Source: Limanda limanda
Taxonomy: Eukaryota; Chordata; Actinopteri; Pleuronectiformes; Pleuronectidae
Length of the DNA stretch: 64,000 nt
Direction of reading: 5' to 3'
NCBI RefSeq assembly: GCF_963576545.1
Contig: NC_083645.1
Coordinates: 3,744,001 to 3,808,000, forward strand
The position numbers were made by a program, and so were the translations under genes. Below are positions 1 through 61,789 of the stretch, piece by piece; position 1 is the first letter of the stretch, and the number at the start of each line of letters is the position of its first letter. The notes below the pieces were generated by a model that was given only the letters and a program-made list of their open reading frames with translations, was not told the origin of the DNA and searched no databases.

Positions 1-3000
1 CAAGAGCGGAGAGCAAATAATTGAAAGGTTCATGCACAATGTGAGATTGAGAAATGTGTTGAGGTACAGATGAATAGTTTCTAAATGCTGCCTCCTGTCG
101 CATCTCAAAATCAATTAAGCCCTGCTCTCATTAGCGATTAAAAATACTTACTCAACAAATGTCTGCCAGCAAGTCTGGTTTGGCTGGAATTTCTCTTTAT
201 GAAAACAAAAAACAGATTGATTCAAGGCAGAAGTAACAACAGTTGCTTCTTAGGACAGAAGTCGTAACTTTACTCCACCGCAGTGTTTCAAGTTAACTAA
301 TCTGAATGTGTGTTGGCGGTTTGGCTATTTATTAGCTCCGGGTTTGCTGCCAAGGAAAGGCAGGAAGGACATCAAGAGGAATCTTTTCTTGTAATGGGAA
401 ACAGTGGACTTTATGGGATATATGGTCCATTCATCCGCTTTCTGCGCCCACATATCCTCTTAAAGACTGCAGGGGTTGGAGCGTGGCCCAGCACCTGTCA
501 GTGGAGAGATGCACCTCGGACAGGTCCGCCGTTGATCACAGGCCTTAAAGTTGAAGCACATATTTCTCCAGGGCTCCTTGAAAACAACCTCTGGAAACCT
601 GAGGGTTTTTCTGAAAAACCTGTTCAATCAAACCCTCATTTCTCAGCTTCTGAAGCAGATAGAGACGTGGCATGAGAAAAAAAACATTCCCCGTTATTGT
701 AAATCATTACCTTTCGCCTTGGACACGGGATATAGCTGAAAACAACAGAAACATTTGTCATAATCTTCGGGTCAGGTCAATTTTTTATTGTTGATTGATT
801 TTTTTAGTGTGTTGATGAACCCTGGGGCAATGATTTACAATAAAACCAAAAGGCTTAAGATCCCAATTGATTTGATTCAATGTTTCCTTTTTGCTTCAGA
901 GCCAAAGAAATAAAGGTTTTAGTGACCTTGTAACTATGCTGTTACGGCCTCACTAAAACCTTTATTTCTTCATCAGTCTTTACCTCCGGCTTGTAGTGGC
1001 ACTGGCTCTTATTCACCCCAATCCTTCTCCCCCCCTCCTCTGGACATGTCTCCTGCCATGATGAAGCACTCACACGACAGCAATGGAGGCTGCAAAAGAA
1101 ATGCTGCTCATTCATTTTAAACTGTGGGACGACTTGTATTTCCCAAGTGCATTGTGACTGTGTCGCTCGCCGTAGAAGTTGAAAAAGCAGCAGCTCAGGT
1201 ACCACCTAATCAAAGAAGGTAAATGCCAATAGGCTACAGGTTCTTCCTCACATATGTCAATATGAACCTGGAGAGAGGAGACAAAGACCCTGCGTATGTT
1301 TATCTGGTCTTGGAGTTTATTTGTCTGTGTACTTCCCTTTAGCGTTCTATGGATATATCATATACAAATCATGTTTTCTGCACTGCCTTTTACCCAAGCT
1401 TAGAAACTCACCCTGTTTACCTTTGTCTTTAACTATTACATTGTTATTTCAAAGGCTTACATCCTTGAATGTTGATGTTTGTATATATTTGAATGCACTG
1501 TCTAAATCCCTTTGAATAGCCTTTTATGTATAAAATGTGTTATTCAAATAGATATTTGTTTTTCTCCTTGAATGCCTTCTTGGTGCTGCACATGGATATA
1601 AAGAGGGTAGGTAACATGACTCGTTACTTTTATACATGTTTATGTGTATATATTGATATTTTGGTTGATCATAACACTTATTTTTCTCAGCCTCCTGACT
1701 TTACAACACAGCTTTATAAATAATATAAATAAATGGTGGCATATTACACTTGGCCAAATATGTATTTGGTTATCTTCGATCATCTGAGCGAGATTCCAAA
1801 TCGCTGTGCCGACATACAGTGCAAAAATGTTCAGACTGTGGTAAGGAGGTGTCACACTTTGAGATCCCTCTATATGTACATTTTGGGGCAGATTATGAAA
1901 GTTGCAGTCGTCGTAAAAAACGTCCTCATTAAACGACTCAGATTTGAAGAAAATCACGACTGAAGCAACAACATATACAGAAAACCTATTTAACATGTAA
2001 CAAACAAATGCTGCTTAATTAATGTAAGCAGATTTTTACCATTGGGTAACTTAAAGCAATGGATGGTAATCCTTGAAAAGCAAGCAAGAGCTAGTAGCAC
2101 TTTGAAAATGTGAAGGCGATACATCCCACCCCCTGCCATCAGCCCTAACATCACAGCGACGCCGCTAAAACGCATGAACATGCACTGCTTGAAGACGACT
2201 TTTATTCTTTTTTGTGACTTTTTCCCTCACCTCTGCATATCGTCTCTACTTCAGTGGTGTATGTCTCCCTGGGTGAAGACTCCGGTCATGAGAGAAGTCT
2301 GACAAACAGCATTCAGGCAAAAAGGTCGGTTAGTGACATGAAATGATTGGTCGGGTTCCTTACAGTCCTGCAAGGGCCACAGGGTTAGGGTTAGGGTTAC
2401 ACAAGCTTATTTTATTTTTCTCACACAACTTTATTTGTTGATGGCTATCGGTATATGAACAGGATTTCAACAAATAAAAAGTATCTCAGAAATAATTTAT
2501 TAATCCTGCCTTTAAACTTTATTTAATTTCTTTGCCACAAAGGTGATCATTGTAGCTTAAATCGATCATGGTAGATTAAATCGTAGTTACCTGAATTTAT
2601 TTGCGACTTTTTATGAACACTACCTTGTAATGCAAAATCAGCCTTCACATAAAAACCCATTACAAAATGTGTTTTTGAGAAAATTACACTATCTGCTTTC
2701 CAAGTTATCCTGTTCAGAAAGGGGAAAGGCTATTTGGTCTTTAGTTTGTTAGAGATGTTTATATTAAGCAATATAACTGAGCTATACAGCATCTACTAAT
2801 TGTAATCTTGATAATCTGTTGGTAAATCACTGCTCAAGACCTGAGCAGCTCCAACGCTTCTCCACCAGTGTAAAAAACATGAGGTGCATGGAGATTATAA
2901 AAACAGCTACAAATAACTCCACTCCACTGACACTGAAGTTCACAAAAGGCAAAATCAAAAGATGGGGTCGAATGGGTTTGTTTAGATTGGTGGTGTATCC

Positions 3001-13076: not shown

Positions 13077-13429
13077 CTTTTCAGTAGAGATGAGCCGGAT
13101 ACTCGGCTGAAACGAGTATCCGGTACGGATAAAGCACTTTTGCCGATCACGAGTATAATACGAGTAATCGGAGTCATTATCTGTGCTCGGACTGAATGAA
13201 AATCCTCACACAGCGTCACAGCGCTCCTCCCGTCACACACGGCTCTGCTCACTCACTCACAGAACAGCTCTCTGTCTCTCAGTCACTCAGGTTCACTGCG
13301 CATCGGGACTGTTCCATAGGCTCAGTCAAGGAAGCAGAAATGATTCGTTCATTTCCCGACTGGGTCTTCGGGTACGAGTCTTTGGAAATTTTTTCACGAG
13401 ACCTGCATTGGCTCAGTAGAGGAGCGCTG

Positions 13430-13785
13430 GAGATGCGAGGGACGTTCACCGTCCCCCTGGAGAAACGAACACTCCGTGCCCCCAGCACAGAAAGACGCAA
13501 ACCACACTTGTCCACAAGCCATAATGACTGGCCTTGCCACCCTCACTCCACATCCACACCTACTTTACAGTAAAGTTTGTATGGTTTGAAATTGTCATCT
13601 ATTATCACACTGCATTTAATTATCACGGCAAACAATTACACTGCACTAAACTTTAAGTGTTAATGTAAAGTGAAAACAACAAAACCAGTCCGTATGACCC
13701 GCGAACGAACACAACTCACGTCTTTCCACACTAAAAACACAGAGCGTTCACCTCTCCGGGAGACAGTGAACGTCCCTCGCATCTC
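13430..13785. repeat. internal inverted repeat (foldback stem-loop) of hAT copy 1
   Basis: The left arm, about 13,430-13,568, is the reverse complement of the right arm, about 13,650-13,785: GAGATGCGAGGGACGTTCAC on the left answers GTGAACGTCCCTCGCATCTC on the right. A transcript through it would fold into a hairpin of roughly 135 bp. Pairing is nearly perfect in copy 2 but is interrupted here by many C-A mismatches, because T has become C in both arms. Confidence 0.85.
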
Positions 13786-13786
13786 A

Positions 13787-13787
<1 letters not shown>

Positions 13788-13839
<52 letters not shown>
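13788..13839. repeat. (CA)n microsatellite inside hAT copy 1
   Basis: Uninterrupted (CA)n of about 26 units directly following the right stem. Copy 2 has an interrupted version at the same place, so the repeat is part of the family rather than a later insertion. Confidence 0.9.
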
Positions 13840-13841
<2 letters not shown>

Positions 13842-14057
13842 GGTGTGGAAATAAATTTAAAAAAAATAAAAATAAAAAAATCCTAAAAAAATTTCAAAGT
13901 TAAAAAAGAAAGTTATGTTGAACCAGCCCACTTCCGGGTTAAATCACACCCACTTCCGGGTTAGGCCCCGCCCACTCCGAGTACGGATACGGATAATTCA
14001 TATGGTTAACAGATACAGATACAGATAATGCTGTACTCGCTCATCCCTACTTTTCAG

Positions 14058-26622: not shown

Positions 26623-29598
26623 CCATCAGCTACCTGGTCACTGTCAGATTCATTGTTTGTTGCTCCTCTACTTTATCATACACAATAATGTTAATGTATT
26701 TCACATTATAGTAATAAAAATTGTCCTGAAATTTTGTAATATTTGTTGTTTCTATATCAACTCAAGAACAGAAAGTGTGTGAAATGGGGAAAAATAGGTG
26801 ACACAGATGTTAACTGCTAAATAAAGTTTCAGCTGGCACAAGGTATTATGTTCACTAAAGAAAGGGGGTAAGAAGGCAAAAACAATCCAACCCAACAATC
26901 TCATCAATTCAAAAATATGTATCTGACATTCATTGTGAATTTTGAATTAACATCTGATACCAACCACTTGAGAAGCCTGTAGATAAAGCACAGACTGAAG
27001 TGACATGAATGAACATCCTTAATCCCACAATGATTATTTCCAAAACCAATCATTTTCAAAAGCCCCACCGGGGCTTAACAAGAGACTGTAAGCACCCCAT
27101 GTGAATCAGCTAGTCCTCTGAAGCGATGGAAAAACAATACTGCTCTTGTTCACACCAGGGGAAGAATTGTGCCTCCGCAGCACATCAAATACACAACAGC
27201 AGGAAGTCATTACGCAGCTACAAAGGGTCCAAGTTCAAAAGTCAGAGGTCAAAAAGCAATAACTCACCTCTTTGTTTGGAATCATAAAGGCATGAATGTG
27301 CTTAGCTGACTGGTCAATATCTGAGGAACAAAAGAGACAGGACAGCCTGGTGAACTGGCTCCTTTGTTTTTTCTACGAGAGAATGATGAGAGAGGCTTTT
27401 ATTTTGAGATGACTTGAAAGAATACCTTCTGTGCCGTGTATTGGCTAAATGGATGATGTTGAGAGGAAGGCAAACTCTAAGAAATGTTTTTGAATATCAG
27501 GTCACATGTTACAAGTGTAAAAATGCATAAACTCAATGTCAAATTCATTCAAAACTGAAGTCCTACTGAAAATCATCATACTTATAAGAAGGTAAAAACC
27601 ATAGCCGTCCAATATAAATATATTCATGTTTGTGATTATGAACATTAATACTTTTGGTTTTGCTGTTCTGCACAGTAACATGAAGTTGTATGTTTCAAGG
27701 CACCATGGTATTTCTCCTCCTGGTTCACCAGGGAAAGTTTACTCGAATCAGTAGTCTGAAAAGTCTGTCAGCATATATATATATATATATATGAATTTAA
27801 CACACTGTTGCTGTAGACTTCATTGCCACCTACTGACCCGTCATGCTTGTTTGAGTGTTTGTAGTCATTTTTGTGTTCTCCTCTGGATGAAGATATTTTG
27901 TTAAATAGGTTTCAGCTTTATTTTTTTACGGTATCAATATTTACGTAACATTTTAGGAGGAAATGTATTGCAACATGAGTTTGAAATGCATGTAAGAGTA
28001 CAACTGTACATCTGGGGCATCAGATAATGTTGTTGTTAAGAAATCACAGGATGCGAAGAAAAGAAAACAATGGTGGTTAGACTCTGTTTGAAAAAACAAC
28101 AACCTGCGTACTGAATTTCAATATCAAGGATCCTGACACTACATTAAAGTTTTCTGCCCGATGTTCATTTCAGTGAGAATATCTGCTTCCCTTTTCCTGT
28201 GAGAAATAAAAATAAATCTAATTCTAATAGCTCAGGGTAGCAGCAGCTAAAATCGAAACATAATCGAGGTAATCCAGGTTTTGACCCTCTCCAAGTCAGC
28301 AGCCTAATGTATTTCTGTCTCAGGTGATTGAATAGGGGGGCCCTGTTGATATGGCAAGCCATTACCTTCTCAGCTTGCTGGGTAGCACACTCACTCAGCT
28401 GTTTCATAGTGGCAAAATCCAGAATGGAAAAAAAAAGAAGAGAGGAAAAGAGCAATCAGAATCCTGACATTGTGCCCCTGTTGTGTTGCCGTGTGAAAAC
28501 TGTAAATTAAAGAGGCCAACATAATCTGAAGAATTAAGAGGGGGAAATGAAGCTGTTACTGCCTGATATTATGTATAGGATATATTAAATATATAAATGT
28601 TCTTTAAAATGGACATAGTCTTACTTTAGCATATTCAAGCTAATTTGTTTATTAGGGTTGTTGTTCCACAGCAAACATAATGAGCTTCCTTGTGCTGCAA
28701 ACATGCTCAATTATTCTCATGGGTCGTAGCACATTCCAGGTTATTCTCAAGGGATGTCCACATGCCTTTTTTATCACCACTGTTTTATTGCAAGCAGATT
28801 GACGACTGTAATGCGTTTCTCCTTGATGTATAATTCAAGTTCTGGAAGAGAACCTGGGTATTGTATGTTGTCAATATGGCTCATTTCCACAGCCCTACAG
28901 TGTATTTGAGCCACGATGGAGTATTACCTTGAGGGATTGAAGGTAATAGTGACTGTATGTACACAGCTCTACATCGCCTTCAAGTTGCAGTTTAAGAGCA
29001 TAAGGCACAACTGTTGAGAAGCAAAGGTTTTTATCATGGTTTGTCAACACTTAAGATTGGGGTAAAGATACAGATCATTCAAGAAGGACTTGTACAAACA
29101 GATTTAACACTAAGTATGACAATTCACAAGATTTTTATAGAAATTTCCAGATATTCTCATTTTCTCTATGGAGGTTTTATCACAAGGACGTTGAATGACA
29201 GGGAATGGAAAAGGCTGCTGCAGCTTATCCACATCTGCCAATGTGGACCCCGTCAGCTGAAGTAGAGTCAAATCTCTGATCTTTTCATTGCTCTAATTTG
29301 TTTTGTCCGCCTCAGCCTCCCTATGTTTTACCTTTGCTATTCTTTACCACTCCTGGGCTCTGCAGTGCAGCATTTTGCCGGCATCCCTAGGAAAAATTAC
29401 ATTGTCTGAATGTAAAACATTATTTTGGTGCTGCTGATCTTAGGCAGATAAAAGTAGCCTGCAAGTCATCATCACATCTTCATACCTTTATCAAATGCTG
29501 ATCATTGTTTTTAGGGTTTAAAATACCAAATTTTGGTGGCAGCAGGTCATATTTCTGTTGCCAACTTGTGTTTATTCTGAGTAACTTGATAACCAAAC
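26623..29598. other. noncoding DNA, no gene recognised
   Basis: AT-rich unique-looking sequence. A short (AT)n run lies at about 27,773-27,792. The short ORFs (for example 28,165-28,455 minus and 29,014-29,265 plus) have no recognisable domain. Confidence 0.5.
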
Positions 29599-29640
29599 GT
29601 AAGTTATGACCATAACTATGGATCTATGAGACCGACCGAT

Positions 29641-29781
29641 GACCGTCACCACGGTCTTAACACGAATGATGTCCTCATCTCCCTATCCTCGAGACCAAAT
29701 ATCAACAATGTCACGTGAGTGACCTTAAGGGGGCTGGGCTCACCGCCCATAAAGCTCCCCGGTGAGCGCGGCCGCCTCCTC
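29641..29781. repeat. DIRS left inverted terminal repeat (3' end of element)
   Basis: A 141-bp segment starting GACCGTCACCACGGTCTTAA and ending GCGGCCGCCTCCTC. It is the reverse complement of 35,733-35,873 and I see no mismatch between the arms. Outside it (29,599-29,640) the left tip is unique to this end. Confidence 0.92.
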
Positions 29782-29821
29782 CTTGTCTGAACGCCTCAGC
29801 CCGTTCTGAGTGACAAAAGAG

Positions 29822-29922
29822 GGTGACGGTCATCGGTCGGTCTCATAGATCCATAGTTATGGTCATAACTTACGATCTATTTCGACCTCCCTCAGACCGT
29901 CACCACGGTCTTAACACGGATG
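29822..29922. repeat. DIRS internal complementary region
   Basis: Bases 29,822-29,873 are the reverse complement of the left tip (ending ...GGTCATAACTTAC). Bases 29,874-29,922 are the reverse complement of the right tip (starting GATCTATTTCGACC). The two are fused with no spacer, so the region represents the element's circle junction. The last codons of the recombinase ORF (stop at 29,911) overlap it, as in other DIRS elements. Confidence 0.92.
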
Positions 29923-45827: not shown

Positions 45828-46757
45828 TAGAGATGAGCCGGATACTCGGCTGAAACGAGTATCCGGTACGGATAAAGCACTTTTGCCGATCACGAGTATA
45901 ATACGAGTAATCGGAGTCATTATCTGTGCTCGGACTGAATGAAAATCCTCACACAGCGTCACAGCGCTCTGCCCGTCACACACGGCTCTGCTCACTCACT
46001 CACAGAACAGCTCTCTGTCTCTCAGTCACTCAGGTTCACTGCGCATCGGGACTGTTCCATAGGCTCAGTCAAGGAAGCAGAAATGATTCGTTCATTTCCC
46101 GACTGGGTCTTCGGGTACGAGTCTTTGGATCATTTTTCACGAGACCTGCATTGGCTCAGTAGAGGAGCACTGGAGATGCGAGCGACGTTCACTGTCTCCC
46201 GGAGAAATGAACACTCTGTGTTTTTAGTATAGAAAGATGTGAATTATATTTGTTCACAAGTCATAATGACTGGTTTTGTTATTTTCACTTTACATTTACA
46301 CTTACTTTACAGTAAAGTAAACCTCTATTAAATACAGTACAACATGACAGTTTGTATGGTTTGAAATTGTCATCTATTATCACACTGGCATTTAATTATC
46401 ACGGCAAACAATTACACTGCACTAAACTTTAAGTGTTAATGTAAAGTTAAAATAACAAAACCAGTCTGTATGACTTGTGAACGAATATAATTCACGTATT
46501 TCTATACTAAAAACACAGAGTGCTCATTTCTCCGGGAGACAGTGAACGTCCCTCGCATCTCACTCACACACACACACACACGCACACGCGCACACACACA
46601 TACACACACACACCTGGTGTGGAAATAAATTTAAAAAAAATAAAAATAAAAAAATCATAAAAAAATTTCAAAGTTAAAAAAGAAAGTTATGTTGAACCAG
46701 CCCACTTCCGGGTTAAATCACACCCACTTCCGGATTAGGCCCCGCCCACTCCGATAC
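45828..46757. mobile_element. non-autonomous hAT element, copy 2 (right tip missing)
   Basis: The same family as 13,085-14,049, starting TAGAGATGAGC. The inverted repeat arms (about 46,173-46,310 and 46,425-46,561) pair almost perfectly, so this copy best represents the ancestral hairpin. Flanks carry the direct repeat ATACTAAC (45,820-45,827 and 46,758-46,765), yet the right end stops at CACTCCGATAC and lacks the roughly 65 bp containing the right terminal repeat that copy 1 has. A (CA)n tract with CG and TA interruptions lies at 46,566-46,613. No transposase is encoded. Confidence 0.88.
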
Positions 46758-61366: not shown

Positions 61367-61789
61367 TAGAGATGAGCCGGATACTCGGCTGAAACGAGTA
61401 TCCGGTACGGATAAAGCACTTTTGCCGAGTACGATTATTATACGAGTAATCGAAGTCATTATCTGTGCTCGGACTGAATGAAAATCCTCACACAGCGTCA
61501 CAGCGGTCCTCCCGTCACACACGGCTCTGCTCACTCACTCACAGAACAGCTCTCTGTCTCTCAGTCACTCAGGTTCACTGTACATCGGGACTGTGTGTGT
61601 GTGTGTGTGTGTGTGTGCGTGAGTGAGATGCGAGGGACGTTCACTGTCTCCCGGAGAAATGAACACTCTGTGTTTTTAGTATAGAAACACGTGAATTATA
61701 TTTGTTCACGTCATAATGACTAGTTTTGTTATTTTCACTTTACATTTACACTTACTTTACAGTAAAGTAAACCTCTATTAAATACAGTA
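61367..61789. mobile_element. non-autonomous hAT element, copy 3 (right half missing)
   Basis: Starts TAGAGATGAGC like copies 1 and 2 and matches copy 2 through AATACAGTA at 61,789, then stops in the hairpin loop, so the right arm and right tip are gone. The left 8 bp (GTATTGAA) is not repeated on the right. Between 61,590 and 61,633 the left arm carries a (GT)n run and GTGAGTGAGATGCG, the reverse complement of what lies beside the right arm in the other copies. It interrupts the Ngaro gag. Confidence 0.88.

What the first reader, a model, noticed from the sequence alone, without database searches (positions are those of the whole stretch)
13449..13752. Hairpin-confined T-to-C hypermutation in a hAT transposon: an ADAR-like editing scar in DNA
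Seen by hand alignment of copy 1 with copy 2 (45,828). In the left stem (13,449-13,561) I count about 31 T-to-C differences and only about 3 others; in the right stem (13,675-13,752) about 13 T-to-C and about 3 others. The roughly 80-bp loop differs by one indel plus the absence of a segment of about 30 bp, and the 340 bp outside the stem has only scattered differences. Example: copy 2 GTGTTTTTAGTATAG is GTGCCCCCAGCACAG in copy 1. Polarity: in copy 2 the Ts pair with As in the opposite arm, and those As are still A in copy 1, so T to C is the derived change; copy 3 also has T. Both arms changing T to C on the same strand means A to G on a minus-strand transcript, in both stems and not the loop. 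That is the signature of ADAR acting on a self-folded RNA. The element has hAT ends and a TSD, so no RNA intermediate is expected. Possible routes are RNA-templated repair, editing of DNA in an RNA-DNA hybrid, or another deaminase acting on an extruded cruciform.
Basis: partly seen in the sequence, partly recalled or inferred. Interest (0 to 1): 0.9.

Follow-up and report, generated by a model that had tools for sequence, protein, structure and literature searches.

The report
RNA-editing scars in transposon DNA
Many copies of a hairpin-forming jumping element in this fish-like genome carry, in their DNA, dense clusters of changes with the signature of an enzyme known for editing RNA, which suggests that edited RNA was copied back into inherited DNA more than once.

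Summary
Copy 1 (13085-14049) differs from copy 2 by 44 T>C and 5 other substitutions in the two stem arms, none in the aligned loop. In 150 near-complete stem-loops sampled from the same genome, 32 are T>C-only, 72 A>G-only, 46 unedited, none both. Counts are bimodal (0-5 or at least 16); no other substitution type exceeds 6 per copy. Edits lie in the arms, hardly in loop or flanks. On the edited strand the 5' neighbour ranks U 0.61, A 0.52, C 0.31, G 0.06 (p about 1e-11); UAG is the best triplet and the same positions are hit on both strands (rho 0.74). That is ADAR's signature. Strand alone needs two events; site patterns form 7 to 22 groups by threshold, the largest with 34 and 23 sampled copies. 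All 22 edited copies whose two ends I found carry an 8-bp duplication. Best reading: ADAR hyper-edits hairpin transcripts and the edited sequence is written back into germline DNA. The write-back route is inferred. One family only; no reads, no RNA data.

The parts
13085..14049 (+). Copy 1: complete 965-bp non-coding hAT-type palindromic element, T>C-edited
   Evidence: Ends TAGAGATGAGC...GCTCATCCCTA and exact 8-bp duplication
13077..13084 (.). Target-site duplication, left copy (CTTTTCAG)
14050..14057 (.). Target-site duplication, right copy (CTTTTCAG)
13430..13562 (+). Left stem arm of copy 1, 30 T>C and 1 other against the unedited consensus
13563..13653 (+). Loop of copy 1, no substitution, 34 bp deleted relative to copy 2
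13654..13785 (+). Right stem arm of copy 1, 13 T>C and 0 other against the unedited consensus
45828..46754 (+). Copy 2: unedited copy, right end missing
   Evidence: Arms 93% complementary; 0 edits by definition as first reference, and 6 differences from the unedited consensus
46173..46304 (+). Left arm of copy 2 (132 nt)
46430..46561 (+). Right arm of copy 2 (132 nt)
61367..61789 (+). Copy 3: partial copy, left flank and left arm, unedited
   Evidence: BLAST matches and alignment

Best explanation
Copy 1 belongs to a non-coding hAT-type palindromic element with several hundred copies. A transcript of either strand folds into a hairpin of about 130 bp. An ADAR-type adenosine deaminase changed many adenosines in the double-stranded arms of one such molecule (shown by signature: A>G only, one strand per copy, arms only, ADAR neighbour preference). 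The edited sequence then became germline DNA (shown: it sits at many loci with different target-site duplications). Most likely the edited molecule was RNA and its sequence was written back by RNA-templated DNA synthesis, either as template in repair of the gap left by hAT excision or as a cDNA that the transposase inserted (inferred). Edited elements kept their ends and were transposed onward (shown for patterns found at several loci). Strand alone requires two editing events; the site patterns suggest roughly ten or more.
For: Of 150 near-complete stem-loops 32 T>C-only, 72 A>G-only, 46 neither, 0 both. Bimodal counts; no other substitution type above 6 per copy. Arms against loop: T>C 646/1519 and 288/1201 against 4/1300; A>G 763/2652 and 1279/3237 against 14/3236. 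Flanks: T>C 0/1760 and 3/1015 in 21 T>C copies; A>G 1/435 in the left flank of 5 A>G copies. 5' neighbour U 0.61, A 0.52, C 0.31, G 0.06 over 168 sites, p=9.5e-12; UAG 23/30, GAU 0/23. Plus- and minus-strand hairpins edited at the same positions, rho 0.74, n=81. Partner unchanged 462/468. 8-bp duplication in all 22 edited copies with both ends found. A_deamin exons and hAT transposase domains are in the genome. In zebrafish a palindromic hAT-family repeat (ANGEL) is edited in RNA at 62 of 63 adenosines, with editing highest in ovary and testes (PMC8096273, passages).
Against: No RNA, no reads, no enzyme test. The 3' neighbour preference (G) known for ADAR is not significant (p=0.12; p=0.087 after a 5' A or U). 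Only one family shows it; a second hairpin family with 53-bp arms gave 0 edited matches (a weak test). High-quality DNA traces of human and Xenopus showed no A-to-G excess (PMC2873906, passages). The write-back step leaves no direct trace that I found; edited copies look like ordinary hAT insertions. The number of events is soft: mosaics exist, and at a loose threshold the A>G patterns merge into 2 groups. Domain PF02137 is also found in relatives of ADAR (recalled), so one search does not by itself prove an active ADAR.
Confidence: 0.7

Rival explanations
1. ADAR edits the DNA directly, in an RNA-DNA hybrid. Because the arms are palindromic, a transcript can pair with the displaced DNA strand in the arms but not in the loop, so editing would be confined to the arms of one DNA strand. 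No reverse transcription is needed.
For: ADAR1 and ADAR2 deaminate deoxyadenosine in the DNA strand of hybrids (PMC12599245, passages). Confinement to arms and one strand per copy would follow.
Against: The same passages say efficiency is higher at A-C mismatches, whereas the sites here were A-T pairs, often a third to a half of all adenosines at once. The transcript would rather fold on itself (inference).
Confidence: 0.2
2. An unknown adenine deaminase acts on a single DNA strand folded into a hairpin (extruded cruciform or single-stranded intermediate).
For: Arms only and one strand per copy fit a single-stranded DNA hairpin.
Against: No such enzyme is known to me in animals (recalled); it would need to copy ADAR's 5' neighbour order.
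Confidence: 0.04
3. Error-prone DNA synthesis or repair at the hairpin (for example a translesion polymerase) made T>C or A>G clusters.
For: Hairpins stall replication (general knowledge).
Against: The loop and flanks are spared and 5' G is avoided in each of 15 representatives; no other substitution type is raised.
Confidence: 0.02
4. Ordinary divergence, a C-rich ancestral subfamily, or conversion from a diverged relative.
For: Edited patterns are shared by many copies, as subfamily markers are, and mosaics show conversion between copies.
Against: Partners unchanged in 462/468 cases; mirror-image classes; bimodal counts; edited groups have 25-43 edits but 0-3 other fixed differences in the six groups examined.
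Confidence: 0.02
5. Sequencing or assembly artefact at hairpins.
For: Hairpins are hard to sequence; raw reads were not available here.
Against: The same patterns recur at many loci with different 8-bp duplications; unedited copies of the same hairpin occur in the same assembly; an error would not follow ADAR's neighbour order.
Confidence: 0.02

Closest known systems
ADAR hyper-editing of palindromic repeat transcripts (zebrafish ANGEL, hAT family, PMC8096273; Xenopus palindromes, PMC2873906; passages read)
   Same: Hairpin repeat, A>G clusters on one strand, 5' G depleted, hAT family in a fish
   Different: There the changes are in RNA; here they are in genomic DNA, inherited and spread over many loci
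APOBEC-type DNA editing of retroelements (PMC2873906 passages; genome-wide surveys recalled, not read)
   Same: Deaminase scars clustered in transposable-element DNA
   Different: There G>A/C>T in elements that pass through cDNA; here A>G in a cut-and-paste element
ADAR editing of DNA in RNA-DNA hybrids (Zheng 2017 as cited in PMC12599245, passages)
   Same: ADAR-type change landing in DNA
   Different: Described in that review for hybrids and R-loops, not as inherited transposon scars
Non-autonomous palindromic hAT elements (MITE-like)
   Same: hAT-like ends, 8-bp duplications, no coding need, high copy number
   Different: This family contains hypermutated lineages
Repeat-induced point mutation in fungi (recalled)
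   Same: Clustered transitions in repeats
   Different: C>T along repeats; here C>T is at most 5 per copy

Membership tests
ADAR A-to-I hyper-editing product | A>G only, one strand per molecule | tested here: met
   32 T>C-only, 72 A>G-only, 0 both of 150
ADAR A-to-I hyper-editing product | Confined to double-stranded RNA-forming sequence | tested here: met
   Arms against loop and flanks
ADAR A-to-I hyper-editing product | 5' neighbour U/A favoured, G disfavoured | tested here: met
   0.61, 0.52, 0.31, 0.06; p=9.5e-12
ADAR A-to-I hyper-editing product | 3' G favoured | tested here: inconclusive
   p=0.12 overall; after 5' A/U G is highest at 0.68, p=0.087
ADAR A-to-I hyper-editing product | Depends on ADAR; inosine in the RNA | not testable with these tools
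   No RNA or knockout data; A_deamin exons present
hAT transposon | Short terminal inverted repeats and 8-bp target-site duplication | tested here: met
   42 of 44 copies with both ends (50 loci looked at), at most 1 mismatch
hAT transposon | Moved by a hAT transposase | not testable with these tools
   hAT dimerisation domains in the genome (150 scored of 1081 candidates); the partner of this family was not identified
APOBEC DNA editing / RIP | C>T or G>A clusters | tested here: not met
   Maximum per copy C>T 5, G>A 6

The most novel reading that the evidence does not exclude
A cut-and-paste DNA transposon has a hidden RNA phase in the germline: its hairpin transcripts are hyper-edited by ADAR and repeatedly copied back into DNA as mobile elements. 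Editing may even help the element, because an edited hairpin pairs less well, is easier to copy and makes less perfect dsRNA, so that edited lineages can flourish.
Probability: 0.6. Interest if true: 0.95.

Novelty: new variant of a known kind. Interest (0 to 1): 0.88.

Why it matters
RNA editing is normally considered not to be inherited. If these scars come from edited transcripts, they are a fossil record of RNA-to-DNA information flow in an animal germline, in an element class thought to have no RNA stage. They make it testable which enzyme and which polymerase do the write-back, how often, and whether editing helps an element escape dsRNA-based control. They also suggest a sequence-only assay (mirror-image A>G and T>C classes in palindromic repeats) for any genome. 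The known kind it extends is deaminase scarring of transposon DNA; the enzyme type and the element class differ.

Tried and rejected
Rejected: gradual divergence (bimodal counts); C ancestral (partner unchanged); APOBEC-like or RIP-like mutation; inversion of A>G copies to explain T>C copies (left flank and arms keep one orientation in the A>G copies with flanks).

Led nowhere: a second hairpin family. Window 29598-29874 (53-bp arms; 170 candidates, 40 scored, 99-100% identical over the query) gave 0 matches to a strict edited pattern; the pattern needs two particular sites edited, so this is a weak negative. The 66-bp palindrome at 905-970 occurs only there. Other inverted repeats near the sampled loci, where I looked, were minisatellite-like or next to family copies; an earlier BLAST scan missed the 29598 pair and was not relied on. 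A first alignment had minus-strand loci unoriented and was redone. Ten paper searches listed no paper whose title or shown abstract start describes A>G scars in DNA-transposon copies; the library holds open-licence papers and no preprints, most papers were seen only as listings, and four were read in passages.

Rows dropped. Of the first 93 extracted rows I set aside L001 and L001b (same as window copy 1) and L056, L080, L088, L036, L064, L097, L090, L087, L100, L046, L076, L079, L067 (partial, rearranged or poorly aligned). Of the 156 remaining, L103, L105, L106, L125, L133, L168 failed the filter. Looked at piecewise, L056, L100, L103, L105, L106, L125, L133 read as A>G and L168 as T>C, one strand each; the others show no cluster in the parts covered. 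L099 gave no stem-loop match. Ten loci of L031-L060 duplicate earlier ones (by place). Seventy-eight stretches (L101-L178) were chosen by an edited 16-mer or a longer edited pattern containing it, so 104 of 150 is not a frequency. Less biased: 5 of 40 copies with an identical loop (37 fetched, 3 already held) and 7 of 30 left-flank loci are edited. L003 and L005 share one duplicated site; L033, L034 and L038 share another; the duplications of L009 and L017 lie in an ATT run.

Full report
WHAT IS THERE. The window lies in a 717-Mb genome of 336 contigs. Its size and repeats suggest a fish; no species name was available, so that is inference. Copy 1 is a 965-bp element at 13085-14049 with ends TAGAGATGAGC...GCTCATCCCTA and an 8-bp duplication CTTTTCAG. 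Copy 2 (45828-46754) has two 132-nt arms, 93% complementary, around a 125-nt loop. In copy 1 the arms no longer pair well: only a 28-nt pair within them is reported. Against copy 2, the left arm shows 31 T>C and 2 other changes, the right arm 13 T>C and 3 others, and the aligned loop no substitution, with 34 bases deleted.

THE FAMILY. Searches with the whole element, the left flank and the loop gave 792, 731 and 570 first-look candidates, 40 scored each time. I obtained 178 loci and aligned their stem-loops to a consensus of unedited copies. Of 156 rows, 150 were near complete: 32 T>C-only, 72 A>G-only, 46 neither, 0 both. Counts are bimodal: T>C 0-2 or 23-43, A>G 0-5 or 16-43. No other substitution type exceeds 6 in any copy. 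The sample is enriched for edited copies, because 78 stretches were picked by edited patterns. An edited 16-mer occurs at 150 places in the genome and its reversed control at none; the unedited 16-mer occurs at 345 places, control 1, and one copy can give two of these.

WHERE THE CHANGES ARE. In the 32 T>C copies, T>C is 646/1519 in the left arm, 288/1201 in the right arm and 4/1300 in the loop. In the 72 A>G copies, A>G is 763/2652, 1279/3237 and 14/3236. In the 46 others, the arms show T>C 2/2190 and 8/1722, A>G 7/1688 and 8/2021. Flanks are clean: T>C 0/1760 (left) and 3/1015 (right) in 21 T>C copies, against 0/840 and 6/473 in 10 unedited ones; A>G 1/435 in the left flank of five A>G copies, whose flank and arms share one orientation.

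POLARITY. For 15 representatives of different patterns, the base opposite an edited position is unchanged in 462 of 468 readable cases. The edited state is mostly a C facing A or a G facing T, so the paired T-A state came first. This answers the worry that many copies carry C.

WHOSE SIGNATURE. Read on the edited strand, all changes are A>G. Over 168 adenosine sites in the arms the mean edited fraction by 5' neighbour is U 0.61, A 0.52, C 0.31, G 0.06 (Kruskal-Wallis p=9.5e-12). Each of the 15 representatives on its own has 0-3 edited of 18-19 sites with a 5' G. By triplet UAG is best (23/30) and GAU worst (0/23); 463 of 1515 adenosines that pair in the predicted fold are edited, and 20 of 373 unpaired ones. 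The 3' neighbour is not significant (p=0.12). The same positions are edited in the plus- and minus-strand hairpins (rho 0.74, 81 positions), as expected if the folded palindrome, nearly the same from either strand, is the substrate. These are known habits of ADAR; papers on zebrafish and Xenopus describe the same depletion of G upstream (passages).

HOW MANY TIMES. Strand alone requires two events. By shared sites the patterns form 6 T>C and 16 A>G groups at Jaccard 0.85; at 0.7, 6 and 10 by greedy grouping, 6 and 8 by single linkage, or 5 and 8 after removing five mosaic or noisy copies; at 0.6 by single linkage, 5 and 2. Mosaics such as L124, L159, L127 and L174, and small patches in L061 and L095, point to recombination or conversion between copies. 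The largest groups at 0.85 hold 34 A>G and 23 T>C sampled copies. Six edited groups examined lie 0.7-1.0% (five groups) and 1.6% (a 4-copy group) from their own consensus, unedited copies 1.1%, and each group has 0-3 fixed differences of other types. The edits thus came in bursts and edited copies then moved: all 22 edited copies with both ends found have an 8-bp duplication with at most one mismatch; 20 of 22 unedited ones do.

HOW IT MOST LIKELY WORKS. Shown: an ADAR-type scar, on one strand, in a hairpin, in DNA, inherited and spread. Inferred: the editing happened on RNA. In zebrafish one repeat of the palindromic hAT family ANGEL is edited in RNA at 62 of 63 adenosines, and editing is highest in ovary and testes (PMC8096273, passages). 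The genome here has A_deamin exons on seven contigs (32 matches) and many hAT transposase domains (150 scored of 1081 candidates). Inferred with less confidence: the edited RNA was copied into DNA, as template in repair of a hAT excision gap or as a cDNA inserted by the transposase. Cellular polymerases able to copy RNA in break repair are reviewed in PMC12686478 (passages). Direct ADAR editing of DNA in a hybrid (PMC12599245, passages) is the main rival: a palindrome lets a transcript pair with the displaced strand in the arms alone, so confinement does not exclude it; dense editing at A-T pairs makes it less likely.

A SPECULATION. Predicted RNA folding of arms plus loop is about -240 kcal/mol for the unedited consensus, -118 to -167 on the mismatched strand and -193 to -232 on the edited strand of edited representatives; but unedited copy 2 itself is at -214 and -220, so the edited strand is not clearly weaker than a real unedited copy. 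Editing might make the element easier to copy and less visible to dsRNA pathways. Nothing here tests this.

LIMITS. One family, one genome, no reads, no RNA. One other hairpin family with shorter arms gave no edited match. High-quality DNA traces of human and Xenopus had shown no A-to-G excess (PMC2873906, passages), so the effect is not general in vertebrates or was not visible there. That nothing like it is in print rests on ten searches of an open-licence library without preprints.

Noticed in passing
window 29598-29874: A hairpin with 53-nt, 100% complementary arms, part of a repeat with 170 candidates whose 40 scored copies are 99-100% identical over the query; looks very young. No edited match to one strict pattern.
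   Followed up: partly
window 45828-46754: Copy 2 lacks the right end of the element, yet a short direct repeat (CATACTAAC) flanks it, as if the end was lost up to the target-site duplication.
   Followed up: no
L028: Two family copies lie head to head: one of the large T>C group and one of the large A>G group.
   Followed up: partly
L033, L034, L038: Three copies on contig C15 share the duplication AAAGTTTC, so they look like one insertion multiplied by segmental duplication.
   Followed up: no
L036 1000-1260: A family copy fused to a rearranged inverted repeat, apparently a mosaic.
   Followed up: no
window 905-970: A 66-bp palindrome that occurs only here by an arm pattern.
   Followed up: partly
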